33,889 nt of DNA from Gammaproteobacteria bacterium. GTDB taxonomy: Bacteria; Pseudomonadota; Gammaproteobacteria; Poriferisulfidales; Poriferisulfidaceae. Below the pieces are notes generated by a model. The model did not search any database. It was given only the letters and a program-made list of their open reading frames with translations, and was not told the DNA's origin. Where the stretch lies: assembly GCA_026706895.1 (NCBI GenBank), contig JAPOXW010000026.1, positions 1 through 33,889 of the forward strand, in the 5' to 3' direction. Position numbers and translations under genes: made by a program. Of this stretch, positions 22,088 to 33,889 are shown one piece after another; position 1 is the first letter of the stretch; each line of letters opens with the position of its first letter.

Positions 22088-22387
22088 TCAGGGGGCGTGC
22101 GGCCTGCCGTCTTTGGTAGGAAGGTTCTGGATTGATTTCCCTGCCGATTCTTCGGCGACCATCAAGTCGAACTGAGACTGAAGGCTGATCCAGAATTGAG
22201 GGCCGGTGCAGAACCAGTGACCGAGCCTCAATGCAGTGTCGCCAGTGATCGATCGCTTGCCCCTGATGATCTGACTGATGCGGTTGGGTGGCACGTCGAT
22301 TTGACGGGCAAACTCGGTTGGAGTGATCCCGATCTCGGCAAGTTCGTCCTGAAGGATGGCGCCGGGATGAACAGCTCTTGAAAACAT
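22088..22387 (-). CDS. higA: HigA-family antitoxin (module 1)
   Basis: 99-residue Xre-type HTH antitoxin. The start HPGAILQDELAEIGITPTEFARQIDVPPNRISQIIRGKRS (two blocks) is the HigA signature, followed by GDTALRLGHWFCTGPQFWISLQ. It neutralises HigB and represses the operon. The ATG at 22387 has GAGGAGG four bases upstream, a much stronger ribosome site than the toxin has, which favours antitoxin excess. It lies 18 bases after the toxin stop. Confidence 0.92.
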   Translation of the reverse strand: MFSRAVHPGAILQDELAEIGITPTEFARQIDVPPNRISQIIRGKRSITGDTALRLGHWFCTGPQFWISLQSQFDLMVAEESAGKSIQNLPTKDGRPHAP

Positions 22388-22405
22388 GACTCCTCCTCAA
22401 AAGGT

Positions 22406-22690
22406 TCAGTGGCAGTCTTGAATTATCACGTTGCTGGGGCCTGTCTGACCGTCTGGCCACTCGAAACATAGCCGCCACTGCCGGTTGATTCGAATAGAGT
22501 GCCAGCCGAGACGGTTGCCCTTGAGAGCCTCGAGCCGATTGCTGGGTAATGCGCGCAGGCTTTTCAGGGAAAGTGCTGCATTCAGGATCGAAAGCCGTTT
22601 CGAGGCTTGCTCCTCAAACCCGTGAAATGCGGGGACATGAATTCCTTTCGCGAAATTCTCGGTGCTCTTGTCGCAATAGCTCAGGATCAT
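22406..22690 (-). CDS. higB: HigB/RelE-family mRNA interferase toxin (module 1)
   Basis: 94 residues of the HigB (RelE-superfamily) fold, a ribosome-dependent mRNA-cutting toxin. Signature parts are KRLSILNAALSLKSLRALPSNRLEALKGNR and GWHSIRINRQWRLCFEW, ending VIIQDCH where the usual ending is DYH. The ATG at 22690 fits the family start exactly. No ribosome site precedes it, and the -10 box is only two bases upstream, so the transcript is predicted to be leaderless or nearly so. Confidence 0.92.
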   Translation of the reverse strand: MILSYCDKSTENFAKGIHVPAFHGFEEQASKRLSILNAALSLKSLRALPSNRLEALKGNRLGWHSIRINRQWRLCFEWPDGQTGPSNVIIQDCH

Positions 22691-22692
22691 GG

Positions 22693-22721
22693 ATTATAGA
22701 AATAATGATGATGTACGTCAA
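22693..22721 (-). promoter_or_regulatory. Near-consensus sigma-70 promoter of higBA module 1
   Basis: On the minus strand TTGACG (22721-22716), a 17-base spacer and a perfect TATAAT (22698-22693). The box ends two bases before the higB ATG, so the start site should fall at or just inside the start codon. Confidence 0.85.
22709..22720. promoter_or_regulatory. Imperfect palindrome TGATGTACGTCA in the higBA-1 promoter (candidate HigA operator)
   Basis: A 12-base dyad with ten symmetric positions (TGAyGTACrTCA), overlapping the -35 box. HigA proteins autorepress by binding such dyads in their promoters. Confidence 0.45.
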
Positions 22722-22806
22722 GCGTCTTTATTTCTGTCCGGGAGGTTCAATCGCACATTTCCCTGCTTTCGCCTCATGCCCGAGCGCCTTTGGGGTTTCC
22801 GGTGTC

Positions 22807-23103
22807 TTATGCGGCCAAGGTGACCCCGAACTTCCGCACCCTGATTTCCCCTTCCCGCTGCAGCGCGTGCCACAGGTCGTACTGCATCTGCTGCTGTAGC
22901 CAGGTCTCCGGGTTCCCGCCGAATCCCTTGGACAGGCGAATGGCCATTTCCGGGGAAATCCCGAGGCGACCGTTGAGCAGCATGGAAAACGTGTTGCGCG
23001 ACACTCCCAGGCCTTCGGCTGCTTCGGTCACCGTCAATTCCAAGGGATCTAGGCAGACCCGGCGGATGAATTCTCCAGGATGCGGCGGATTGTGCATGAG
23101 CAT
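22807..23103 (-). CDS. higA: HigA-family antitoxin (module 2)
   Basis: 98-residue Xre-type antitoxin: [43 protein letters not shown] (blocks HPGEFI and [14 protein letters not shown] are diagnostic), then [30 protein letters not shown], a typical HigA end. The ATG at 23103 has GGGAGGA ~7 bases upstream; the frame is open further left only as toxin shadow. It differs strongly from the module-1 antitoxin, so the modules were acquired separately rather than duplicated. It lies 14 bases after its toxin. Confidence 0.93.
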
Positions 23104-23117
23104 GTGGTTTCCTCCCC

Positions 23118-23396
23118 CTAGTGGTAGTCCAAACAGTTGACACCGGCGACCCCGCCCTCGGCAAAGCGAAAGACTATTCGCCAATTCCTCCCGGCCGAAA
23201 TCGCCCGGTAGCCCGCATGGTCGCCTCTCAGGGGATGGAGCGCAAAGCCGGGAAGGTTCAGGTCTTCGGGGACCGTTGCCGCATTCAGGCGCGTGAGCGC
23301 ATCCCTGACGGCTTGGCGGTGCTCGGCGGGAATGCGCCTCGGGTCCCCGCGCAGGAAAAACCGCTTGAGTGCCCTGCTCCTGAAATTCCGGACCAT
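23118..23396 (-). CDS. higB: HigB/RelE-family mRNA interferase toxin (module 2)
   Basis: 92 residues of the HigB family: [19 protein letters not shown], then [29 protein letters not shown], and the core [16 protein letters not shown] with the ending VNCLDYH. The toxin comes first in the operon, as is typical of higBA. As with module 1, no ribosome site precedes the ATG (23396) and the -10 box sits three bases upstream, so a leaderless message is predicted. Confidence 0.93.
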
Positions 23397-23850: not shown

Positions 23851-24726
23851 TCAGTATGAGCATTTGACGAAGACGGCGATGGTGGCCGTGTCGGAAGTGG
23901 CGCTTTCCTCGCCTCCGGATCCGGTGATGACCGCCCGCACCCGCCAGGAGTCGGTGAGATCGTCTACCGGCAACTGGATTCCGTGCAGCGCCCGGCCGCT
24001 GGGTGGCGAAACCCGGCTGAGAGCGGTGAAGATGCGCGGCGTCATGCTGTCCGGACAGGTCGGTTTGCGGATCAGATCGCCGGGACTGGCCGCGGTGGCG
24101 AACTGCACGGAATTGAGCAAGGTCTGCCCGGTCTCGGTGGCCACGTCGCGGGCGCCGAACAGGTACTGGTTGCCCAAGTTCCAGGTTGCCGTGGGGCTGG
24201 CGGAGCCGTCCAGCGGCATGAACGCGCCCCCTGTGCCGGGCGGGTCGGCGGGTCGGGGGTAGTGCACGGTCACAACCATGCCGGAGGCTGACGCGCCAGG
24301 GACCTTTTGGACGAGGGCGGCCGCCTGTCCGGCATTCTCCGCGGTGGCCGCGATGGTGAAATGATTGGAGTCGCAGGACAGCACGTACCCGGCCCGGTTT
24401 CCCTCGGAATCGAGATAGGGAGACAGCCGGGATGCGCCCTTCAGCAGGCCTTTCGCGTTCAACTCGTTGTACGCTCCTTCGCACAGCAACATCTCCAGCG
24501 GCCACCCGCCTTCGTTGATGAGGTAATGCTGTGCCGCATTGGCCAGGCGGTAGATTTCTTCCGCTGCCTGCTCGGTGCGGTCGCGTTCGAGATCGTCGAC
24601 AAGACGGCGGGTGGCACTGAGCTGAAGGGTGCCAGCGAGAATCGAGAACAATGCCAGAGTGATGACCAACTCCAGCAGGCTGAAGCCCGACTGGTGCGCA
24701 CAGGGGCTTGAACGGGAGGGCTTCAT
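23851..24726 (-). CDS. Large type IV prepilin-like protein (PilV-like minor pilin/adhesin)
   Basis: 291 residues. A 14-residue leader ends in Gly before FSLLELVITLALFSILAG, the class of N-terminal helix with Glu5 that prepilin peptidase processes. A coiled helix (RRLVDDLERDRTEQAAEEIYRLANAAQHYL) continues it. The ~220-residue globular part has four cysteines (LLCEGA, LSCDSN, PTCPDS, VKCSY), enough for two disulfides, and Gly/Ser/Thr-rich beta sequence at the end. Size and place after the other pilus genes fit PilV, the tip adhesin of R64 thin pili. No shufflon-type inverted repeats or recombinase gene are present. ATGA overlap with the preceding gene. Confidence 0.75.
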   Translation of the reverse strand: MKPSRSSPCAHQSGFSLLELVITLALFSILAGTLQLSATRRLVDDLERDRTEQAAEEIYRLANAAQHYLINEGGWPLEMLLCEGAYNELNAKGLLKGASRLSPYLDSEGNRAGYVLSCDSNHFTIAATAENAGQAAALVQKVPGASASGMVVTVHYPRPADPPGTGGAFMPLDGSASPTATWNLGNQYLFGARDVATETGQTLLNSVQFATAASPGDLIRKPTCPDSMTPRIFTALSRVSPPSGRALHGIQLPVDDLTDSWRVRAVITGSGGEESATSDTATIAVFVKCSY

Positions 24727-25145
24727 TCGGTCCCCTGCCGGATCTGGCGCAGCCGTCGTGCCCGCCAAAGCGGAATGCGGAGTTCCGAGGCTGGAAAGGG
24801 GACTCGCACGGCTTCGGTCTCTCCATCAATCAGAATGCGAGGGTCGGCGCCGTCAAGCGCGACCCGGTAGGTTTGCCCGTCACCCAGCCGGGCCGGAACC
24901 GAGAGGTGAGGCAGGGCGGTTTGCAGGTCGGCGGCGGTGGCGACATCACCGGTGAGCAGGCCGTTCCGGTGTGCGCGGGCGGCCAGCGACGCAATGTACC
25001 GGCTCTCAGTCCACTTCACATGGATTTTTCCCGCATCGATGCGTGCGCCGGCGAACGAGCCGATCAGGCCAATTGCGAGGCCCACTATCGCCAGTGCGGC
25101 CAGCACTTCCGGAAAGGTGAATCCTTGTTGCGTGACGGCCTTCAT
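24723..25145 (-). CDS. Type IV prepilin-like protein (minor pilin)
   Basis: 140 residues. The short leader MKAVTQQG is followed by FTFPEVLAALAIVGLAIGLIG, a standard prepilin helix with Glu5. The mature domain is ~110 residues and has no cysteine. It carries the feature VPFPASELRIPLWRARRLRQIRQ, a basic C-terminal end. It starts within the stop of pilR (ATGA overlap) and overlaps the next prepilin gene by four bases. It is likely a minor pilin that primes assembly, but it could be a major subunit; the sequence does not tell which. Confidence 0.8.
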   Translation of the reverse strand: MKAVTQQGFTFPEVLAALAIVGLAIGLIGSFAGARIDAGKIHVKWTESRYIASLAARAHRNGLLTGDVATAADLQTALPHLSVPARLGDGQTYRVALDGADPRILIDGETEAVRVPFPASELRIPLWRARRLRQIRQGTE

Positions 25146-26287
25146 TGAACGGAGATCGAGTAGATCGGAACCAGGAATCCCTTGACGAGCAGCAACATGA
25201 GGGTCAGGACCACCCCCGAGTAAAACCAGCGGGTCCAACGCACGGTTCGTTCCAGATGCCAACTGATTTCGGTGTGCAGGTTGGTTTGTATGGCCGAGAA
25301 CAAGTGCGGAAGCTGTGCCGTCGGCGCATCCTCAAACCGGTACAGCCCCACCGCCAGGGTACGGCTGAAATAACGCTCGGACAGACTCTGCGAAAGACTG
25401 TGCCCGGTGCGCAGGCGCGTGTACAGGTACTGGCTGGCGCGCTTTCCGAGCAGGGGATGCAGCGAGCGCACCAGGTCGGCGAGATGAACGCCCTTGCGGA
25501 AGGCCGGGGCGAGGACGGCGAGCAGTACGGAGGAACGTTGCCCACGCACCAGGGCATCGATGTCGCGTAGCGGAGGGAGCGTCCGGATGCGGCTCCAGAA
25601 TCGGTATCCGGCGAAGGCGAATATGACGACCACGCCCAGCGTCAGAGGCAGGTAGCGGGTCAGCAGGGCATGCAGGGTCATCAGAATGTCGGTCGCGAGA
25701 GTTGTTTGGATCTCGACACGGCCGGACAGGCGGTCAAGCAGCATCTGGAACAAGAATGGCGTGAGGGCGAACAGGCCGAGTGTGGCCACCGTGTACAGGC
25801 CAGCGCGCAACAGAGGGGCATGGAGCTTCTCCCGGCTTTGCCGTTGGCGATCCAGAAACTCTGCCGCCTGCAGCAACATGTCGGGAACCTGCCCGAGACG
25901 CTCTCCCTCGCGGCACAGGGCAATGGCGAAAGGGTGCACGTTGAGATGCAGCAGGAGTTCGGCGGGAGCCAGGCCGGCCAATCCCGCCGCACTTCGGGAG
26001 TGCCGGTTCCGCAGCAGTGTCGGGAGTTGTGCGACCACCCGGTCCAGTTCCTCGGGTGTCAGACTGCCGCGGCTTAGTTGCATGGACATCTGGGCCAACA
26101 GCAGGCGCTGTTCATTGAGATCGACCCGCCGCAGGCCCAGCCATTCCTTCCAGTGCCGCCGAACCGACAGCACCCGGCGGTGGGCGACCGCCGGGTGCCG
26201 GCGCGCGGAATCCGGGCTGTCCGCATCCACCGCGAGCGGGATGGTGGCGCCCTGCGGCGACAGGCAGCGCACGGCGTAGAGGGTCAC
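25142..26287 (-). CDS. pilR: Type IV pilus inner-membrane platform protein (PilR/GspF family)
   Basis: About 381 residues. Two repeated four-helix GspF-type cytoplasmic domains are seen, the first with LLLAQMSMQLSRGSLTPEELD and CREGERLGQVPDMLLQAAEFLD, the second with LRTGHSLSQSLSERYFSRTLAVGLYRFEDA. Hydrophobic segments lie at ~150-175, ~200-225 and at the C-terminus (WFYSGVVLTLMLLLVKGFLVPIY). This protein links the assembly ATPase to pilin insertion. The start is uncertain: a GTG at 26287, three bases after the pilin stop, is the most upstream codon that makes sense; there is no ribosome site, so re-initiation after the pilin gene is likely. Confidence 0.82.
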   Translation of the reverse strand: MTLYAVRCLSPQGATIPLAVDADSPDSARRHPAVAHRRVLSVRRHWKEWLGLRRVDLNEQRLLLAQMSMQLSRGSLTPEELDRVVAQLPTLLRNRHSRSAAGLAGLAPAELLLHLNVHPFAIALCREGERLGQVPDMLLQAAEFLDRQRQSREKLHAPLLRAGLYTVATLGLFALTPFLFQMLLDRLSGRVEIQTTLATDILMTLHALLTRYLPLTLGVVVIFAFAGYRFWSRIRTLPPLRDIDALVRGQRSSVLLAVLAPAFRKGVHLADLVRSLHPLLGKRASQYLYTRLRTGHSLSQSLSERYFSRTLAVGLYRFEDAPTAQLPHLFSAIQTNLHTEISWHLERTVRWTRWFYSGVVLTLMLLLVKGFLVPIYSISVQ

Positions 26288-26289
26288 GG

Positions 26290-26751
26290 TCAGGGAATCC
26301 GGTAGTTCACCGTCAGCGTGTCGTTGTTGCTGCCATAGGTGGCCGAACTGATGGCCGAACCCGATGCGAGCCCGAGGGCGGTGGCGAGATCGGGACCGAA
26401 GGCGTCCGCATCCTCGGCGCTGGTGAGCACCCAACTCAGGCTGACGGTTCGCGCAGCCGGAGTCCCCAGCGTCCAGGCATCGCCGAACGGTCCGTTGGCG
26501 GAGACGCCGGCATCCGTGATGTCCGTTTTGGTGACGCCGGTCAGGCTGCCGTTGATCGCGCGGTATGAAATCAAGGCGGCAGGGATGTCGTTGAGCAGGG
26601 TGTCCTTGCTGCTGGCCATCGCCAGTTCCGTCTCGGCCGTCCCGAAACTCGTGACGATCGTCGAGACGAGAATGCCGATCAGCGCGATGACGGCCAGGAT
26701 CTCCGGCAAGGTGAATCCGCGTTGGCGGAGGCTTGGGTTCGGATGTTTCAT
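26290..26751 (-). CDS. Type IV prepilin (candidate major pilin, PilS-like)
   Basis: 153 residues. A 12-residue basic leader (KHPNPSLRQRG) precedes FTLPEILAVIALIGILVST, with Glu5. The ~130-residue mature protein has no cysteine, is rich in Ala, Ser, Thr and Gly, and ends in beta-type sequence (NNDTLTVNYRIP). Its place directly between the ATPase and platform genes differs from R64, where the pilin gene follows pilR. Overlaps the ATPase gene by four bases. No separate promoter or strong ribosome site is visible, unusual if it is the main structural subunit. Confidence 0.8.
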   Translation of the reverse strand: MKHPNPSLRQRGFTLPEILAVIALIGILVSTIVTSFGTAETELAMASSKDTLLNDIPAALISYRAINGSLTGVTKTDITDAGVSANGPFGDAWTLGTPAARTVSLSWVLTSAEDADAFGPDLATALGLASGSAISSATYGSNNDTLTVNYRIP

Positions 26752-28451
26752 GATGCGGGGTTCTCCGTGAAAGTAAGTTGAAGGGGAAGGGTGTGCGACT
26801 CGGGAACCTGGACGGGTTCACCGGGGGGTTCGGGCAGGATGCGCAGGCATTCGGCCCAAGTGGTCTGTCCGGCGCGAACCAGGTCCGTGGCATCATCCCA
26901 GAGATTCCGGAATCCCTGAGTGCGGGCGGTGTCGTACAGTTGCGTCAGGCCGGCGCCGTCGGCGATGCCGCCGGCGAGCCGGGGCTCCAGGAACAAGGTC
27001 TCCGCAATGCAAATGCGTCCGCGATAGCCGCTGTACTCGCAACGCTCGCATCCCTCCGGGCGGGCGACCGGCCAGCGTTCACCCGGCGGCAGCCCGAGCA
27101 GCCCGGTGGCTTCCCAACCGGCTTCGTCGTAATTGTGCGTTGCACAGACCGGACAGACTTGGCGGACCAGCCGCTGTGCACTGACAGCGGCCAGGGTGTC
27201 GGCGATCAGGTGGGAGTGGACGCCGAGGTTGCGCAGGCGCTCGATGGCGCCAAGGCTGTTGTTGGTGTGCAGGGTGGAGAGCACCAGGTGACCGGTCAGG
27301 CTCGCCCGGCAGGCGAGCCGCGCCGTCTCCTCGTCCCGGATCTCGCCGATCAGGATGACGTCCGGGTCCGCGCGGAGGAGCGCTCGCAGGCCCGTGGCGT
27401 AACTCATCCCGATGTCGTCGTTGATCTGGATCTGGTCGATGCCCGGGATCTGCACCTCGATGGGGTCCTCCAGCGTCTTGATGGAGACCTGGCTGCGGTT
27501 GCGCCGAAGGATCTCCATCACCAGCGCATAGAAGGTCGTGGTTTTGCCCGCTCCGGTCGGGCCGGTCAGCAGGAACAGGCCGCTGTTCATGGCGACGATC
27601 CGGCGCAATGACTTGATGAAGGCAGGTCCCAAGGCCAATTGATTCAAGGTCTGCACCGAACGCTGGTAGCCGGCCGCGATGCGCAGCGTGAACGAGCCCC
27701 AGACCTTGCGGCCGATGGTGACCGGACACATGTTGACCCGGATGAAGAAGACCCGCCCCCTCAGGGACATCTCCAGGCTGCCGTCCTTCGGCGTGTTGTA
27801 GACCCCATGCTGGTTCCCGGACAAGGTCAGCAGGGTGTTGGAGATCAGCCGGTAGTTGCACCTTTCCGACATCACCATGCGTTCCTCGCGCAGGGTCAGG
27901 AGCAGCCCGTTCCGGCGCATCTTGATTTCCACGGCCTCGTTGTCGCGCGGCACGATGTGAAGATCGCTGGCCTGGTGGTCGATGGCGAGCGTGAGCCATT
28001 CGTGCAGAACCTGTTCCGCCTCCGGAGACAGGGACGGGTCCTGGGCCTTTTCGGAGTGAGCGTCGGGCTGGATCGGGATCAGCCCGGTTTCCCCGCGGTG
28101 CCGATCCAAGGCATCCCTCGGCAGTGCCAGTTGCGGATTTCGGATCAGAGGTTGACAGGCGAACGGATCGGCCACGAACAATCGGCCGTCGGCCCAGGCC
28201 ACGGCACCGTCCGCGGCATAGTCCAGGGGGCCGTGCTGGTTCTCGGAATACACCGGCATTGAGAAGGCCTCCGACAGGGCCAGCGTGACCGATTCCACGT
28301 CGGCGCCGGCCCGCAGCAGGCGGGGGACAATCGCCTCGGGGGTGTTCGGGCAGGCCAGTTGCATGGCATTCGACGGCAGGGCGCCGGAATTGACGAGCGT
28401 CTGACGGACCGCCTCGAAGCGTTGCACGATCCGATCGGACAGAACGTTCAC
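26748..28451 (-). CDS. pilQ: Type IVb pilus assembly ATPase (GspE/PilB superfamily, R64 PilQ-like)
   Basis: 567-residue hexameric ATPase that powers pilus extension. The N-terminal part (~1-140) is family-variable. The core has SDLHIVPRD (~162-170), Walker A GPTGAGKTT (297-305), Asp box TLEDPIE (327-332), Walker B ILIGEIRDEE (366-375), His box with TGHLVLSTLHTN (386-397), and a zinc-type Cys set, CPVC (433-436) and CERC (468-471), which marks extension ATPases rather than retraction ones. Start is a GTG overlapping the pilP stop. The name pilQ follows the R64 scheme; in Pseudomonas PilQ means the secretin. Confidence 0.92.
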   Translation of the reverse strand: MNVLSDRIVQRFEAVRQTLVNSGALPSNAMQLACPNTPEAIVPRLLRAGADVESVTLALSEAFSMPVYSENQHGPLDYAADGAVAWADGRLFVADPFACQPLIRNPQLALPRDALDRHRGETGLIPIQPDAHSEKAQDPSLSPEAEQVLHEWLTLAIDHQASDLHIVPRDNEAVEIKMRRNGLLLTLREERMVMSERCNYRLISNTLLTLSGNQHGVYNTPKDGSLEMSLRGRVFFIRVNMCPVTIGRKVWGSFTLRIAAGYQRSVQTLNQLALGPAFIKSLRRIVAMNSGLFLLTGPTGAGKTTTFYALVMEILRRNRSQVSIKTLEDPIEVQIPGIDQIQINDDIGMSYATGLRALLRADPDVILIGEIRDEETARLACRASLTGHLVLSTLHTNNSLGAIERLRNLGVHSHLIADTLAAVSAQRLVRQVCPVCATHNYDEAGWEATGLLGLPPGERWPVARPEGCERCEYSGYRGRICIAETLFLEPRLAGGIADGAGLTQLYDTARTQGFRNLWDDATDLVRAGQTTWAECLRILPEPPGEPVQVPESHTLPLQLTFTENPAS

Positions 28452-28918
28452 GGCACCGTCTTCTCAAGCGGGATCCGGAGCCGCATTCCATCGGAGCTTT
28501 GGACTTCAAGCGAGTCGACGCCGACCGAATGGATTTGCCAAGGTCCAAGTTGCTGTCCGGCACGAACCTCGACGTACTGGCCGCTGTCGAGACGCAATTG
28601 CGCGCGTCCCTGGTAGACATTGACGAGCCGCGGCAGGTCTAGGGTTCGCGCTGGGATCGGGCCAGGATGGTCCGCTTCTCCGGCTGGCGACGGGATCAAT
28701 TCCGCACCTGGGCAGGGATAGCCGGTCTGCCGGCATTCCTGAAGTTTCTTCGCGATCCGCAACTGGACTTCAAGGAGCGCGTCTGTGGCATGCAGGCGCT
28801 GCAATTCGTGAACATGGGTCTCGGCCTCTTGGAGGATTCGCCGGGAAGTTTCTTCGGCAGGGTCGCCGTCCGCCAGCACCGGGGCGGACAGGACGGCTGC
28901 CAGCAGGGCCGCCCTCAT
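28448..28918 (-). CDS. pilP: PilP-like periplasmic pilus biogenesis protein
   Basis: 156 residues with a signal peptide (LLAAVLSAPVLA, cleavage near residue 16). A helical, coiled segment (EETSRRILQEAETHVHELQRL) is followed by a C-terminal ~60-residue beta domain with LVNVYQGRAQLRLDSGQYVEVRAGQQLGPWQIHSVGVDSLEVQ (read as YQGRAQLRL, then GPWQIHSVGVDSLEV), the pattern of R64-type PilP and of GspC/PilP homology regions. It probably joins the inner-membrane platform to the secretin. Start ATG at 28918 overlaps the upstream stop. Confidence 0.75.
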   Translation of the reverse strand: MRAALLAAVLSAPVLADGDPAEETSRRILQEAETHVHELQRLHATDALLEVQLRIAKKLQECRQTGYPCPGAELIPSPAGEADHPGPIPARTLDLPRLVNVYQGRAQLRLDSGQYVEVRAGQQLGPWQIHSVGVDSLEVQSSDGMRLRIPLEKTVP

Positions 28919-29424
28919 GTTTCACCTTTGACGTTGGGGTTCGCACCGAGCATGAACAGCACGGCATGCGCGATTCCACCCGAGGCCCGGATCTCGTCCA
29001 CGATCAGCGGCACCTGCGGTTGGGCGGTTCGGCACAGCCAGACGACGGACGGAAACGTCCCGCGCAGCGCAATTTTCCACACCGTGCCACCGAAACTGCC
29101 GATTCGTCGCTGGACTGCTTCCGGGTAGAAGCTCGGGTCCGCTTCAATAACCTTTATCTCATGCACTCCCGGCAGGGTTTGGGCCAGTTGGCGCAGTTGC
29201 CGCAGTTGCCAGTGGATGGGGCGCACTGGTGGCAGGCTTTCGAGACGTTGCCGGGATTGCACAAACCTCGCATACTGTTCGGAAATCCCGGCCAGGTCCG
29301 GGGTGGCGCGCTTCTGGTCAAGCATGATCACGACGAAGCCCGCGAGGCTCAGGCACAGGATGCCGAACAGCGCGGGCAGTCCTTGCTGCTGCCACCGGCT
29401 ACCAGACAATGCGAAGCGAGCCAT
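28915..29424 (-). CDS. Bitopic inner-membrane platform protein (GspM/PilO-like)
   Basis: 169 residues: a short cytoplasmic N-terminus, one membrane helix (~16-35, LPALFGILCLSLAGFVVIML), a coiled region (ISEQYARFVQSRQRLESL and QLRQLRQLAQTL) and a small C-terminal domain with alternating beta strands, the ferredoxin-like layout of GspM/PilO. It overlaps the preceding gene by 26 bases. Sequence identity to a named protein is not evident; the call rests on topology and position. Confidence 0.6.
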   Translation of the reverse strand: MARFALSGSRWQQQGLPALFGILCLSLAGFVVIMLDQKRATPDLAGISEQYARFVQSRQRLESLPPVRPIHWQLRQLRQLAQTLPGVHEIKVIEADPSFYPEAVQRRIGSFGGTVWKIALRGTFPSVVWLCRTAQPQVPLIVDEIRASGGIAHAVLFMLGANPNVKGET

Positions 29425-30268
29425 CGGGCTGGTGCGTGATCTGCCGGGTCATCAGTCCGGCCGGAGGAGCGGGAGGGAACGTATCGAGCGGGTACACGAT
29501 GGCCGTTAGCGTCGGGGCGGCCAGCACAGAGGCTTGCGGCAGTTCGATTGGCTGGAAGTTCCAGGACAGGACCAGCAACTGATCGAGACGGCGTGACTGG
29601 TCGATGGGTTCAATGCGCCCGCCGGCTTCCAAGCGGGCGAGATCCTGTTGCAGTTGGACGGTCTGTTCGCGCAGACGTTCGGCCTGCTGCACCTTCTGTG
29701 CATGGCGATGGCTCAGGATATGGTCGGCCGCGGTGCCGGCGAACGCGCTGCCGAGAACCATGATGCCAGCGGCTGTCAGAGCCCGAAGGCGGACGCGGGC
29801 CTTCTGAGCCCGGCGGTATCGCAGGGTTTGGATTGGCTGCGACGGAAGGCTTAGGACTTCGGGTGCCGGGTCGATCCAAATTGGCTCGGGCGCGGTGTCG
29901 GTCAGTGCGAACGCATCCAACAGGGTTTCGCCCGTGATCCGTCCGCTGCAGGCGTTTCCGGTTTCGCGAAGAAGGTAGCGTCCTCCATGCGGCTCGGTAT
30001 CTGTGGTGACCTGGTACAGGCCGGGTTTCTGCGGGATGAGCCCGGACGCGATCAGGACCTGCCAGAGCCCGTACAGGGGCAGGCCAGGATAGAGTTCGGA
30101 CAGGGCATCGGCAGATTCCTGCTCGACATAGAGGGGCAGCTCCGGATCATCCGAAGCGACGGTCATCAGACGTTCGGCCAAAGCACCGGTGAGGTGCGTC
30201 AGCACCAAGTCGTCCACCAGGATCACCTGATGTGAGCCGATCCGGGTAGGGCGATCGAGTGGAATCAT
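29399..30268 (-). CDS. Bitopic pilus platform protein with a large cytoplasmic domain (GspL/PilO2-like)
   Basis: 289 residues. A cytoplasmic domain of ~160 residues is followed by one membrane helix (~162-182, LTAAGIMVLGSAFAGTAAD), a coiled coil (HRHAQKVQQAERLREQTVQLQQDLARLEA, ~190-218) and a ~70-residue periplasmic end. This is the layout of GspL or fused PilM-PilN, which dock on the ATPase. R64 PilO sits at the same place but is longer. The ATG at 30268 shares one base with the pilN stop (TGATG) and has GAGGTGG upstream; upstream frame is shadow. No separate pilM is present, so this protein may cover part of that role. Confidence 0.6.
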   Translation of the reverse strand: MIPLDRPTRIGSHQVILVDDLVLTHLTGALAERLMTVASDDPELPLYVEQESADALSELYPGLPLYGLWQVLIASGLIPQKPGLYQVTTDTEPHGGRYLLRETGNACSGRITGETLLDAFALTDTAPEPIWIDPAPEVLSLPSQPIQTLRYRRAQKARVRLRALTAAGIMVLGSAFAGTAADHILSHRHAQKVQQAERLREQTVQLQQDLARLEAGGRIEPIDQSRRLDQLLVLSWNFQPIELPQASVLAAPTLTAIVYPLDTFPPAPPAGLMTRQITHQPDGSLRIVW

Positions 30269-31782
30269 CAAATGGCCACCTCGATGGGGGTGATAACGAT
30301 CATCAGTTCCCGGTTGGTCTTCTCCAAGGTGGAGCTGGCGAAAGCCCGGCACAGGAAGTGGTCGCAGTTCAATTGGTGGGCGGCCTGCAATGACCGGCTC
30401 TGGATCAGCCCGCCGAGCAGGATGGGCTTGCCGCTCCGGGTGATGGCCAGCGTGGCCATTTCCTGGATGGCGATGTTGGGTCGCACGACAGTGGAGATGC
30501 CAGTCTCGAATTCGCTGTGCGAGCGGATCGACGACAGCACCGGGACGACTTCGACCAGGATGGAACCGTCATGGCGCATGCGCGGAGTGACGGCGATGCG
30601 GAAACCAACCCGGATGTGCTCGAATTCAGTGGCGAGGACCGGTTCGCGACTGCCTTCGCCGAGCACCAGGTCGGTGCCGGCGATGAAGCTGACCTCCTCT
30701 CCATCACCGAGGAAAGTCGTCATGCCGTTGACAACGGTGAAGACCGGGTCGCTGCGGACCGTGACCTGGCCGTGCCGCGATAGTTGCTGCACCATGGCGT
30801 TGAGGCTCCAGCGCCCGAATTCCAATGCCGCATCGACTTCCCAGGCTCCGCCGGCGCGTACGAAAGACAGGTTGCCGGGTACGGTTCGGGACGCGGCGAT
30901 ACGCCGGTCCACCGAATCGTAGAGCAGGCTCAAGTCCAGTCCGCCGCCGGATCCTTCCTCGCGGGAGACGTCGAGAATGGCAACGGCCATCAGGACCTGC
31001 CGCGCACCCCTGCGGGTCTGTTCGGTCAGCCAGGCGTCGAGTTCGTGGATGCGCGAGACCGGCCCCCGTGCGCGCAGCAGGCCAAGGCGCTGGTCTGCGA
31101 CCAGCCAGGTTTGGAGGGGCGCCCCGGGTGTCGATGCCGTTCCAGTGTCGGACACCCCCAGGATCGAACGCGCATTGGCGAGCAGGTCTTCCCATGGGGA
31201 ATCCGTGTGGTCATAAGTCACCGTCGCGGCTCCCTCTTCGGACTGGCTGCCGTCTTCACTGCTTTCGCCGTCTTTGCTTCCGGTGGAAGAAGACAGCGAG
31301 ACGGCTTGGCCGACCTTGAGTTTCGCCTGACCGTGGCCGGCAAATGTGCTGACGTCCCAGGAACGCGTCAGGTAGGACGACACGTGCACGATCGGCAATT
31401 CGGGATCCAGTTCCAGTGCGTAGCCGGTCATGCCCTCAAGAATGTCCAGGTACTGTCGGAGGCTGAGATCGTTGACGCGGACGCTGTAGCGCTGGCTCAG
31501 ATCGATTTCCGGAGTGGCGGGCACGAGGTTCAAAGCCGGGTCGGCCCGGGTCAGGCACTCGACCAGCGTGACTTCCCTGAGGTTGAGAGTGACGGACAAA
31601 TCAGCATTTTCTGCATGCGGTTGCTCGATGCGGACGAACGGGCGAGGCGGTATCGGTGGAGCGGGTGTCGCGGTCGGGGCATCCAGCGGTTGCGGGAAAT
31701 GGATTTCGCCGGGCGAGATTTCCGGTCCGGCGCAGGCATGCAGCGCAAGTGCGACCAGGGGCAGTGCAGCGCGTGAGTTCAC
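30268..31782 (-). CDS. pilN: Type IVb pilus secretin lipoprotein (PilN/BfpB-like)
   Basis: 504-residue outer-membrane secretin. A lipobox (ALHAC, Cys17) marks it as a lipoprotein. A Pro-rich spacer, an N-domain with VECLTRADPALNLVP and LSLRQYLDILEGMTGYALELD, and a low-complexity Ser/Asp/Glu linker (~165-195) follow. The C-terminal secretin domain (~330-495) has VRSDPVFTVVNGMTTFLGDGEEVSFIAGTD, VGFRIAVTPRMRHDGSILVEVVPVLSSI and MATLAITRSGKPILLGGLIQS (each part of a longer conserved run). The start is a GTG at 31782 that overlaps the pilL stop (GTGA). Membership of the PilN subgroup rests on the lipobox, the gene order and the downstream PilP/PilQ set. Confidence 0.9.
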   Translation of the reverse strand: MNSRAALPLVALALHACAGPEISPGEIHFPQPLDAPTATPAPPIPPRPFVRIEQPHAENADLSVTLNLREVTLVECLTRADPALNLVPATPEIDLSQRYSVRVNDLSLRQYLDILEGMTGYALELDPELPIVHVSSYLTRSWDVSTFAGHGQAKLKVGQAVSLSSSTGSKDGESSEDGSQSEEGAATVTYDHTDSPWEDLLANARSILGVSDTGTASTPGAPLQTWLVADQRLGLLRARGPVSRIHELDAWLTEQTRRGARQVLMAVAILDVSREEGSGGGLDLSLLYDSVDRRIAASRTVPGNLSFVRAGGAWEVDAALEFGRWSLNAMVQQLSRHGQVTVRSDPVFTVVNGMTTFLGDGEEVSFIAGTDLVLGEGSREPVLATEFEHIRVGFRIAVTPRMRHDGSILVEVVPVLSSIRSHSEFETGISTVVRPNIAIQEMATLAITRSGKPILLGGLIQSRSLQAAHQLNCDHFLCRAFASSTLEKTNRELMIVITPIEVAI

Positions 31783-32543
31783 GGCTGTCCCAACACGACC
31801 AGTTTCTGGTCTTCGAAGATGTGCAGAACGAATTCATCTTGGGCCTGATCTCCGAGTTTTCGAGCCAATTCGGTCAGAGCATCCCACCAGGTCGTCGAGG
31901 AAATCAACGAGACCCGGGCTTGCAGAAGAATGGATGGGACTTCCGGACGAAGCGTCCAACCAGGGGGGACAATCAGATCCAACGCCTCCTGCAGGGTCAT
32001 GTCTTCAACGAAGATTTCGGCCGGATCATGCAAGCTGGTCGGCAGGGGCAGGCTCATTGCCGCCGGATCCGGGTCTTCCATGGCAAGGCTTTGGGCACCC
32101 TCGATTTCAATAGGGGAAGTCTGCCGCTCCAGTTGCGTCTGCCACTCTTCGGTCGGCTGGATAATCAGTGTGCGATACAGCGGATTGACCTTGAGTTGCC
32201 AAGCCCCGCCAGTCAGGACGCCCAGAGCTTCCGACAGGTGAATGGGTCCAAGGTTTCGGTGCACCTCAGGCAGCGGCTGTGGCATCAGGATAGTTTTCGC
32301 CCAGTGGCTGCGTCGTTCGTCAAGGCGGTAACCCGAGCGCGTCAGCAGGTGGGCCAAGGCTTCGCCGACGGTGGCAATTTCCTGCGGGAACCGGATCTGG
32401 GTCAGGGTGACCTGGAGAGGGTGGCGTTGCGCATGGCTGCTGCCGGGCATCAGGTAGGCGTAGCGGGCGATGGGGACAGGATCTTCGGCGGCCGACCCCA
32501 GGCCGGGGAGGGCGAGGCAACAGGCAAGAAAGATTCCGCGCAT
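31779..32543 (-). CDS. pilL: PilL-like protein (PFGI-1/R64 type IVb pilus)
   Basis: 254 residues with an N-terminal signal peptide (IFLACCLALPGLGSA, cleavage ~19). The region ~25-130 resembles the PilL N-terminal domain of integrative-element and R64 pili: a YAYLMPGSSHAQRHPL stretch, then VGEALAHLLTRSGYRLDE, MPQPLPEVHRNLGPIHLSEALGVL and GGAWQLKVNPLYRTLII. A second secretin-N-like repeat (VEDMTLQEALDLIVPPGWTLRPE) follows. Such proteins act in the periplasm, probably with the secretin or peptidoglycan. It heads the operon; GGAG lies seven bases before the ATG at 32543. Confidence 0.75.
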   Translation of the reverse strand: MRGIFLACCLALPGLGSAAEDPVPIARYAYLMPGSSHAQRHPLQVTLTQIRFPQEIATVGEALAHLLTRSGYRLDERRSHWAKTILMPQPLPEVHRNLGPIHLSEALGVLTGGAWQLKVNPLYRTLIIQPTEEWQTQLERQTSPIEIEGAQSLAMEDPDPAAMSLPLPTSLHDPAEIFVEDMTLQEALDLIVPPGWTLRPEVPSILLQARVSLISSTTWWDALTELARKLGDQAQDEFVLHIFEDQKLVVLGQP

Positions 32544-32593
32544 GGGCAGGCTCCGGTTGGTCCTGCCACATTAGGCCAGCGAAGAGGCGAAAT

Positions 32594-32625
32594 CAAGGAA
32601 AAATGGTCGGAATTTTTAGACCATT
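32594..32625. repeat. Dyad repeat, copy 1, upstream of the pilus operon
   Basis: 32 bases identical at 31 positions to 33609-33640. It contains the inverted repeat AATGGTC...GACCATT with a ten-base AT-rich spacer; in this copy the arms extend to ten bases each. It lies 51 bases before the pilL start codon and 57 bases after the CPBP gene. It could be an operator, an attenuator or, because of a T-rich end on the minus strand, a weak terminator of the CPBP gene. Confidence 0.75.
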
Positions 32626-32681
32626 TTTATCTTTTATAAATCAATAAGTTATGAAACAAAAAAAGGTGCTGAATCTTAGTT

Positions 32682-33530
32682 TCAGGGTGTTTTTCCGAGT
32701 TTTGGGGAGAGGTGCCAGAGCCCGAGGACGAGAATGGCCATCCACGCGACGCCGGTCCAACCACCGGATGCGTCGGTGCCGAGCCAAGCGGGACCGAAGG
32801 GACCGGGGTAGGTGAAGAACTGAAAGGATTTAAGGCTGAAGACCATGGCGGCATGCGCACCGATACAGAACGCCAGGCTGCCGGTGCGTAGCCGCACGAG
32901 GCCGAGGCCGAGGCCGATCAAAAGCAATAAGGACAGGCGGGGCAGTTGCTCTAACCACTGCTCGGGCATATCGAGCGTGGCACTGGCAAGCAGCAGCCAT
33001 CCTCCGTTCCACTGGCCCACCAATCCCGGATCGGGCGTCGGATTGAGGAAATGGATGCCGGCGAAAAACAGGGCCGAGGCGGTCAGCGGCAACCCATAGC
33101 CGGACACCCGGGACAGCAGGAGACCGCGGAAATACAGTTCTTCCACCGTCGCAACGGCGAGTGCCGCAATCAGGTATCCGGCCAGCTTGGTGCTCAACTC
33201 AAGGCTCCACATCCAGGGATCGAGGAAACGCGCGTTCATCTCAAGGAGGAACAACCACAGGGGTATCAGCAGGGCGGCCGTGAGGGAGAATGCGATCAAC
33301 CCCTGCACGAGCAGGGATTCGATGCCGCCGCTCAGGCCGAGGGCGTCCCGGGTAACCCGGTGTCGCGCCCACAGCACGAGCACGACGACGGCAACCAGCA
33401 AGGCACCGTATTTGACGAGTTTGTGGTGCGGAACCGGCAGCGGCCAAGTCGAACAGACCAGGCCCGATAGAAATGCACCGCCCGCCAGTGCGGCGAGCAA
33501 CAGGAGAGCGTAGGTCCAGAAGCTTCGCAC
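32682..33530 (-). CDS. CPBP-family intramembrane protease
   Basis: 282-residue polytopic membrane protein of the CPBP (Abi/CAAX-protease) family, glutamic-type intramembrane peptidases. Motif 1 is EELYFRG (Glu130, Glu131, Arg135), motif 2 FFAGIHF (His160) and a later GAHAAM provides the third site. About eight hydrophobic helices are visible. Start is a GTG at 33530; no good ribosome site is seen and no upstream ATG. A 5-bp hairpin at the stop followed by seven U on the minus strand (32664-32658) is a weak terminator candidate. The gene lies just upstream of the pilus operon in the same direction and shares a dyad repeat with it. The substrate is unknown. Confidence 0.88.
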   Translation of the reverse strand: MRSFWTYALLLLAALAGGAFLSGLVCSTWPLPVPHHKLVKYGALLVAVVVLVLWARHRVTRDALGLSGGIESLLVQGLIAFSLTAALLIPLWLFLLEMNARFLDPWMWSLELSTKLAGYLIAALAVATVEELYFRGLLLSRVSGYGLPLTASALFFAGIHFLNPTPDPGLVGQWNGGWLLLASATLDMPEQWLEQLPRLSLLLLIGLGLGLVRLRTGSLAFCIGAHAAMVFSLKSFQFFTYPGPFGPAWLGTDASGGWTGVAWMAILVLGLWHLSPKLGKTP

Positions 33531-33608
33531 GAGAATCGATTCACCAATCTTCGGAAACCCATGATTTTAGAGGAAATGGAACCGACTACACCAAACAGGC
33601 CCCAAAGG

Positions 33609-33640
33609 CAAGGAAAAATGGTCGGAATTTTCAGACCATT
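33609..33640. repeat. Dyad repeat, copy 2, upstream of the CPBP protease gene
   Basis: Second copy of the 32-base element, with one difference (C for T at 33632) and a seven-base perfect arm AATGGTC/GACCATT. It lies 78 bases before the CPBP start codon and 117 bases before the rightward partial gene at 33758. Because there is no gene ending here, a terminator role is unlikely for this copy. Confidence 0.75.
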
Positions 33641-33757
33641 GTTTCTTGCTTTCTCCTTTCCTTTTAGGCACGATTTGGATTTGCACCGGATGGGCTCGAA
33701 AGACATCTTGTCATTACCCATCCTGCCAGGGAAAGACTATTCTTAAGGAGAACTTCC

Positions 33758-33889
33758 ATGGACCCGAACGTTCAGAAATCCACTTCCGCTTCCGTTTCAC
33801 GCAAGCAACCCGCTTCGCGTCCGCCCGGGTTCGATACATATATGGTTCGTCCCCTCCCTGCAAGCCCGAAGCTGACATGGGGGTCGATC
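33758..33889 (+). CDS. N-terminus of an unidentified protein, cut by the window edge
   Basis: Open frame from ATG at 33758 to the last base, 44 codons, with AAGGAG eight bases upstream. The start is Ser/Lys/Pro-rich (KSTSASVSRKQPASRPPG) followed by FDTYMVRPLPASPKLTWGSI, so it is a soluble, disordered beginning without a signal peptide. No family can be assigned from this part. It is divergent from the CPBP gene. Confidence 0.6.
   Translation, partial: MDPNVQKSTSASVSRKQPASRPPGFDTYMVRPLPASPKLTWGSI

What the first reader, a model, noticed from the sequence alone, without database searches (positions are those of the whole stretch)
32594..33640. Near-identical 32-bp dyad element before both the pilus operon and the CPBP protease gene
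32594-32625 and 33609-33640 match at 31 of 32 bases in otherwise unrelated intergenic DNA. Both hold AATGGTC-N10-GACCATT, both are in the same orientation, and both lie 50-80 bases upstream of a leftward start codon. This suggests one DNA-binding regulator controlling pilus and protease together. Copy 1 could also act as a terminator, but copy 2 has no gene ending before it, which favours an operator or leader element.
Basis: partly seen in the sequence, partly recalled or inferred. Interest (0 to 1): 0.65.

Follow-up and report, generated by a model that had tools for sequence, protein, structure and literature searches.

The report
Shared switch for pilus, secretion genes
A 24-base DNA palindrome, kept letter for letter at eight promoters in an uncultured gammaproteobacterium and at matching promoters in its sister species, appears to be the docking site of one still unknown regulator that runs a pilus, a relaxase-less type IV secretion system and a family of coiled-coil proteins together.

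Summary
The two copies match at 31 of 32 bases, and the dyad AATGGTC-N10-GACCATT is exact in both. The genome (1.69 Mb, 98.7% complete) holds exactly 8 dyads and no degenerate ones. All 8 precede gene starts. The five other genomes of the genus hold 25 more exact copies, and orthologous genes keep the element while its flanks diverge; it is essentially absent elsewhere.

Each site has a fixed layout: an IHF consensus about 26 bp upstream (not at copy 2), the dyad, then a -35-like TTGNNT 5 bp downstream. A subset has CTTTACAT direct repeats further upstream.

The targets form a regulon: the PFGI-1-class pilL pilus operon in the window, both leading units of an ICE-type T4SS, several CCDC90-like (PF07798) coiled-coil genes, and a divergent CPBP/CCDC90 pair at copy 2. 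Sites vanish together with their genes.

The REP, terminator and RNA-hairpin readings fail their tests. Best reading: the operator of one sequence-specific regulator, probably an activator aided by IHF, comparable in logic to the SetCD, AcaCD and BisDC regulons. The genome has no FlhC homologue, so it is not a member of that family; the regulator is unidentified.

The parts
32602..32625 (-). Dyad copy 1 (gene strand AATGGTC-TAAAAATTCC-GACCATT), upstream of the pilL operon
32639..32651 (+). IHF consensus site AATCAATAAGTTA (WATCAANNNNTTR, 9 of 9), reverse orientation relative to the gene, 13 bp upstream of dyad copy 1
   Evidence: 2 matches in the window, 0.25 expected; position conserved at other sites
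32591..32596 (-). Inferred -35-like TTGATT for pilL, 5 bp downstream of the dyad
   Evidence: column conservation; inferred
32568..32573 (-). Inferred weak -10-like TAATGT for pilL (17 bp spacer)
   Evidence: inferred, weak match
31779..32543 (-). pilL, first gene of the pilus operon (PFGI-1 class ICE type IV pilus protein PilL2)
   Evidence: TIGR03748 94.7 bits, cut-off 64.15
23851..31782 (-). Rest of the conjugative type IV pilus operon: secretin, PilP-like, ATPase, T2SSF-like, prepilins
33617..33640 (-). Dyad copy 2 (gene strand toward CPBP: AATGGTC-TGAAAATTCC-GACCATT), in a divergent intergenic region; near-symmetric flanks GCAAG...CTTGC
33606..33611 (-). Inferred -35-like TTGCCT toward the CPBP gene
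   Evidence: inferred
33646..33651 (+). Inferred -35-like TTGCTT toward the divergent CCDC90-like gene
   Evidence: inferred
32682..33530 (-). CPBP (Rce1-like) intramembrane protease-family gene
   Evidence: PF02517 52.9 bits, cut-off 22.4
33758..33889 (+). 5' part of a divergent CCDC90-like gene, cut about 80 nt in, apparently by an insertion sequence; remainder at the start of contig C1
   Evidence: intact orthologues in L147 and L151

Best explanation
The dyad is the operator of one sequence-specific dimeric DNA-binding regulator. Its sites sit just upstream of weak sigma-70-like core promoters, with IHF bound further upstream at most of them. The regulator most likely activates transcription: IHF bends the upstream DNA, and at three promoters this would bring a second set of proteins bound to CTTTACAT repeats toward RNA polymerase. 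Together the sites form a genus-specific regulon: the PFGI-1-class type IV pilus, an ICE-type T4SS without its cognate relaxase, CCDC90-like coiled-coil proteins and one CPBP protein. Shown: sequence, copy number, placement, conservation, gene association, and presence of ihfA and ihfB genes. Inferred: protein binding, activation rather than repression, the transcription start, and the identity of the regulator (unknown).
For: Exactly 8 sites in the genome, 0 in the reversed control, none degenerate at up to 3 mismatches over 19 positions. All 8 precede gene starts. Same genus: 3-7 exact sites in each of five genomes; other relatives 0, apart from one single site in G053. Three extra near-copies in the genus lie at expected orthologues. 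Between distant orthologues the arms are 308/308 identical, against 33-39% in ungapped flanks (biased by exact-match selection, but one search shows few others). IHF consensus at a fixed offset: 17 of 32 sites match 9/9 against 0.8% expected; ihfA and ihfB present above cut-offs. TTGNNT at a fixed position after the dyad. Sites go with genes: G001 lacks the T4SS ATPase and both T4SS sites; G004 lacks pilL and its site; a G004 CCDC90-like gene and its dyad are deleted together, leaving the upstream repeats. CTTTACAT-N11-CTTTACAT occurs only at these promoters, plus that remnant.
Against: No regulator is identified and none of the 8 sites precedes a recognisable regulator gene. The -35/-10 match is weak (mean 7.05 of 12 against 6.25 shuffled; no promoter passes the standard scan). 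Copy 2 lacks an IHF site. Position alone cannot separate activation from repression.
Confidence: 0.72

Rival explanations
1. The same dyad is a repressor operator: the regulator holds the pilus, T4SS and CCDC90-like genes silent until a signal, with IHF as an antagonist or co-repressor.
For: Palindromic operators with near-perfect symmetry are common for repressors (general knowledge); core promoters lie just downstream.
Against: The dyad lies upstream of the -35-like hexamer rather than over the -35/-10 region; core promoters are weak; a fixed IHF site upstream is more typical of activation (general knowledge).
Confidence: 0.17
2. A hairpin in the transcribed leader (attenuator or RNA element): the promoter lies upstream (TTGATT as -35) and the dyad folds in the mRNA.
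For: Both strands fold better than shuffles (z -3.4 to -5.1); a T run follows the second arm.
Against: Inner pairs are broken in 6-9 of 15 variants and covariation does not exceed shuffles; arms are invariant rather than compensated; the TTGATT occurs in the opposite orientation (ATCAA) at the same place in class B sites, as expected for IHF, not a -35; a conserved TTGNNT lies downstream of the dyad.
Confidence: 0.06
3. An intrinsic terminator of the upstream gene.
For: Stem followed by a T run; copy 1 follows the CPBP gene.
Against: Copy 2 and the sites in L001 and L005 lie between divergent genes; the scan calls no terminator at either dyad, though its loop limit of 8 excludes a 10-nt loop.
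Confidence: 0.02
4. A REP, MITE or other mobile repeat.
For: Several near-identical intergenic copies.
Against: Only 8 copies, all at gene starts of the same gene families, none degenerate, kept at orthologous places in species whose flanks have diverged.
Confidence: 0.02

Closest known systems
SetCD boxes of SXT/R391 ICEs (PMC4344509) and AcaCD boxes of IncA/C plasmids (PMC4207636)
   Same: A dedicated master activator site immediately upstream of the -35 of several promoters for conjugation genes; weak -35/-10 elements reported for SetCD promoters.
   Different: AcaCD sites listed in the paper differ in sequence (SetCD's logo is in a figure and was not compared); AcaCD and SetCD are FlhDC-like and no FlhC homologue exists in this genome; here an IHF site lies at a fixed offset; targets include CCDC90-like genes and no relaxase.
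ICEclc transfer competence regulon, BisDC (PMC9286271)
   Same: Eight of nine bimodal promoters of an ICE carrying related core genes share one motif (27 bp) and are switched on together.
   Different: The motif sequence is in a supplement I could not read, so it was not compared; BisDC is the activator there, which I recall as FlhDC-like, and no FlhC-type protein is found here.
PAPI-1 pil2 operon control by TprA (PMC8565334)
   Same: Regulation of a pilL2 pilus operon of the same class through a site upstream.
   Different: The TprA site lies 254-287 bp upstream, MvaT silences the promoter, and ihf inactivation did not induce ppilL2 there.
Legionella LGI type T4SS (PMC3864950)
   Same: Genomic-island-type T4SS without an identifiable relaxase.
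   Different: Legionella islands carry their own lvr regulatory module; no comparable dyad is described in the passages read.

Membership tests
Shared operator of one regulon | Same sequence at promoters of functionally linked genes and not elsewhere | tested here: met
   8 sites, all at gene starts; pilus, T4SS and CCDC90-like genes
Shared operator of one regulon | Site retained with orthologous genes and lost with them | tested here: met
Shared operator of one regulon | A protein binds it | not testable with these tools
   needs EMSA or pull-down
FlhDC-type activator box (SetCD, AcaCD, BisDC) | FlhC-family subunit encoded in the genome | tested here: not met
   PF05280: 0 matches at E up to 1
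FlhDC-type activator box (SetCD, AcaCD, BisDC) | Site immediately upstream of the -35 | tested here: inconclusive
   TTGNNT 5 bp after the dyad at most sites, but the promoter itself is inferred
IHF-assisted promoter | WATCAANNNNTTR at fixed distance and IHF genes present | tested here: met
   binding itself untested; CPBP site is an exception
REP/MITE repeat | Many copies with a range of decay, independent of promoters | tested here: not met
Intrinsic terminator | Follows the end of a gene | tested here: not met
   divergent contexts at copy 2, L001 and L005
Structured RNA leader | Compensatory changes in the stem | tested here: not met
   no Rfam match there
PFGI-1-class ICE machinery | PilL2 and T4SS core proteins | tested here: met
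   TIGR03748, TIGR03744, TIGR03746 and TIGR03756 above cut-offs; others below
PFGI-1-class ICE as a transmissible element | MOBH relaxase TraI_2 | tested here: not met
   0 of 6 genomes; coupling protein TIGR03743 only below cut-off, also in T4SS-less G001

The most novel reading that the evidence does not exclude
The dyad marks a domesticated, relaxase-less conjugation apparatus in which CCDC90-like membrane coiled-coil proteins, relatives of mitochondrial MCUR1, are working partners or cargo of the T4SS and pilus, all switched together by a new regulator with IHF.
Probability: 0.2. Interest if true: 0.75.

Novelty: new variant of a known kind. Interest (0 to 1): 0.52.

Why it matters
It ties an orphan ICE-type secretion system, a conjugative pilus and the CCDC90-like family, whose bacterial members had no function assigned in anything I found here, into one regulon. 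That gives a handle on what those proteins do in an uncultured lineage. The dyad also offers bait to find the regulator, and a sequence tag that predicts further members of the system in related genomes.

Tried and rejected
FlhC-type activator: searched, absent. Rfam: only a tRNA in the window. RNA structure: folds well but without covariation. Viral contigs: 2 matches, not followed. A regulator gene beside the operons: nothing convincing; two HigA-like antitoxin genes lie past the end of the pilus operon but have no dyad. Paper searches on DUF1640/CCDC90 and on possible host symbioses gave nothing that bears on function.

Full report
Observation. The two copies are as described: 31 of 32 bases, same orientation, exact AATGGTC-N10-GACCATT in both. 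Read on the strand of the leftward genes the element is AATGGTC-TRAAAATTCC-GACCATT followed by TTTCCTTG.

Copy number. The window's own genome (1.69 Mb, 33 contigs, 98.7% complete) has exactly 8 copies and the reversed-pattern control has none. Allowing 3 mismatches over 18 or 19 fixed positions adds no place. A decaying repeat would show intermediates. The five other genomes of the genus have 4, 6, 7, 3 and 5 exact copies; of the other relatives searched only one has a single copy, with a different spacer.

What follows the sites. pilL (TIGR03748, above cut-off) and its pilus operon in the window. Two successive units on contig C30: the first starts with a 215-aa protein followed by a weak TIGR03759 match; the second starts with a RAQPRD-family protein just below cut-off, then TIGR03746, TIGR03749, TIGR03752, TIGR03756, the VirB4-type ATPase TIGR03744 (852 bits) and TIGR03755, and later a TraG_N protein. 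Four CCDC90-like genes (PF07798, weak to clear matches). At copy 2, the CPBP gene on one side and a divergent CCDC90-like gene on the other, the latter intact in L147 and L151. The other genus sites examined, including the three near-copies, precede members of the same set; two G005 sites at contig ends could not be assigned a gene. A further CCDC90-like gene ends the T4SS region.

Natural experiments. G001 has no TIGR03744 ATPase and no T4SS sites; G004 has no pilL and no pilL site. At one G004 locus the direct repeats remain while the dyad and most of the CCDC90-like gene are deleted. The element therefore follows the genes.

Promoter anatomy. Aligned on the dyad, 17 of 32 sites carry a 9-of-9 IHF consensus, all beginning 24-27 bp upstream, in either orientation, against 0.8% in composition-matched sequence. 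The G005 sites of the GGCAAATTCC type were oriented the wrong way in that test; turned round, they show TTGATA or TTGAAA at this place, so the count is conservative. ihfA and ihfB are encoded. Three promoters of the genome (second T4SS unit and two CCDC90-like genes) add CTTTACAT direct repeats 19 bp apart, which occur nowhere else in the genome at up to 2 mismatches. Downstream of the dyad a TTTCC block and a TTGNNT hexamer are conserved at a fixed position, then conservation drops, with weak -10-like hexamers such as TACAAC, TAGAAC or CATCAT 16-18 bp on. The sigma-70 score is only slightly above shuffled sequence, so the core promoter is inferred from position and conservation.

Sequence against structure. 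The 14 arm bases do not vary among the exact copies, while the centre drifts by species group: mostly TRAAAAWWCC in G000-G002, mostly WAAAAAWWYT in G003-G004, GGAAWWTKCC in G005. The three inner pairs are broken in 6 to 9 of 15 variants and there is no excess of compensatory change. This suits protein reading of duplex DNA rather than an RNA hairpin.

Mechanism. The best reading is an operator for one dimeric regulator, likely an activator, upstream of weak promoters with IHF as architectural helper. The logic resembles SetCD, AcaCD and the ICEclc transfer-competence regulon (PMC4344509, PMC4207636, PMC9286271), but there is no FlhC homologue, and it differs from the TprA/MvaT control of PAPI-1 pilL2 (PMC8565334). 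The MOBH relaxase is absent from all six genomes and the T4SS genes lie between housekeeping genes in this genome, so the apparatus may no longer move its own DNA; this last step is inference.

Limits. The genomes compared are largely fragmented assemblies; several sites lie at contig ends. The exact-match search favours conserved arms, though the relaxed search found only three more. The regulator is unknown. No experiment was done.

Noticed in passing
window 33842-33889 and L245 1-60: The divergent CCDC90-like gene is split between the end of contig C6 and the start of contig C1, with ATGGTTCGTCCC / GGGACGAACCAT at the break: likely terminal inverted repeats of an insertion sequence.
   Followed up: partly
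L147 8200-9140: In G001 a transposase-like gene sits just upstream of the pilL dyad and its insertion appears to have replaced the IHF site; the dyad itself is intact.
   Followed up: partly
L161, L162, L164, L165: In G005, DnaA-box-like TTATCCACA sequences lie about 40-60 bp upstream of four dyads.
   Followed up: no
window 22088-23184: Two HigA-like antitoxin genes and a HigB-like gene lie downstream of the pilus operon.
   Followed up: no
L174 9500-19940 and L009 90-4070: ICE-type T4SS genes embedded between housekeeping genes (pgeF-like and rluD-like on one side, purH and groEL on the other), without a MOBH relaxase in any of the six genus genomes.
   Followed up: partly
L009, L012 and orthologues in L155, L156, L158-L160: CTTTACAT direct repeats 19 bp apart, with a third looser copy at some sites, upstream of a subset of dyads: possible site of a second regulator.
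   Followed up: partly
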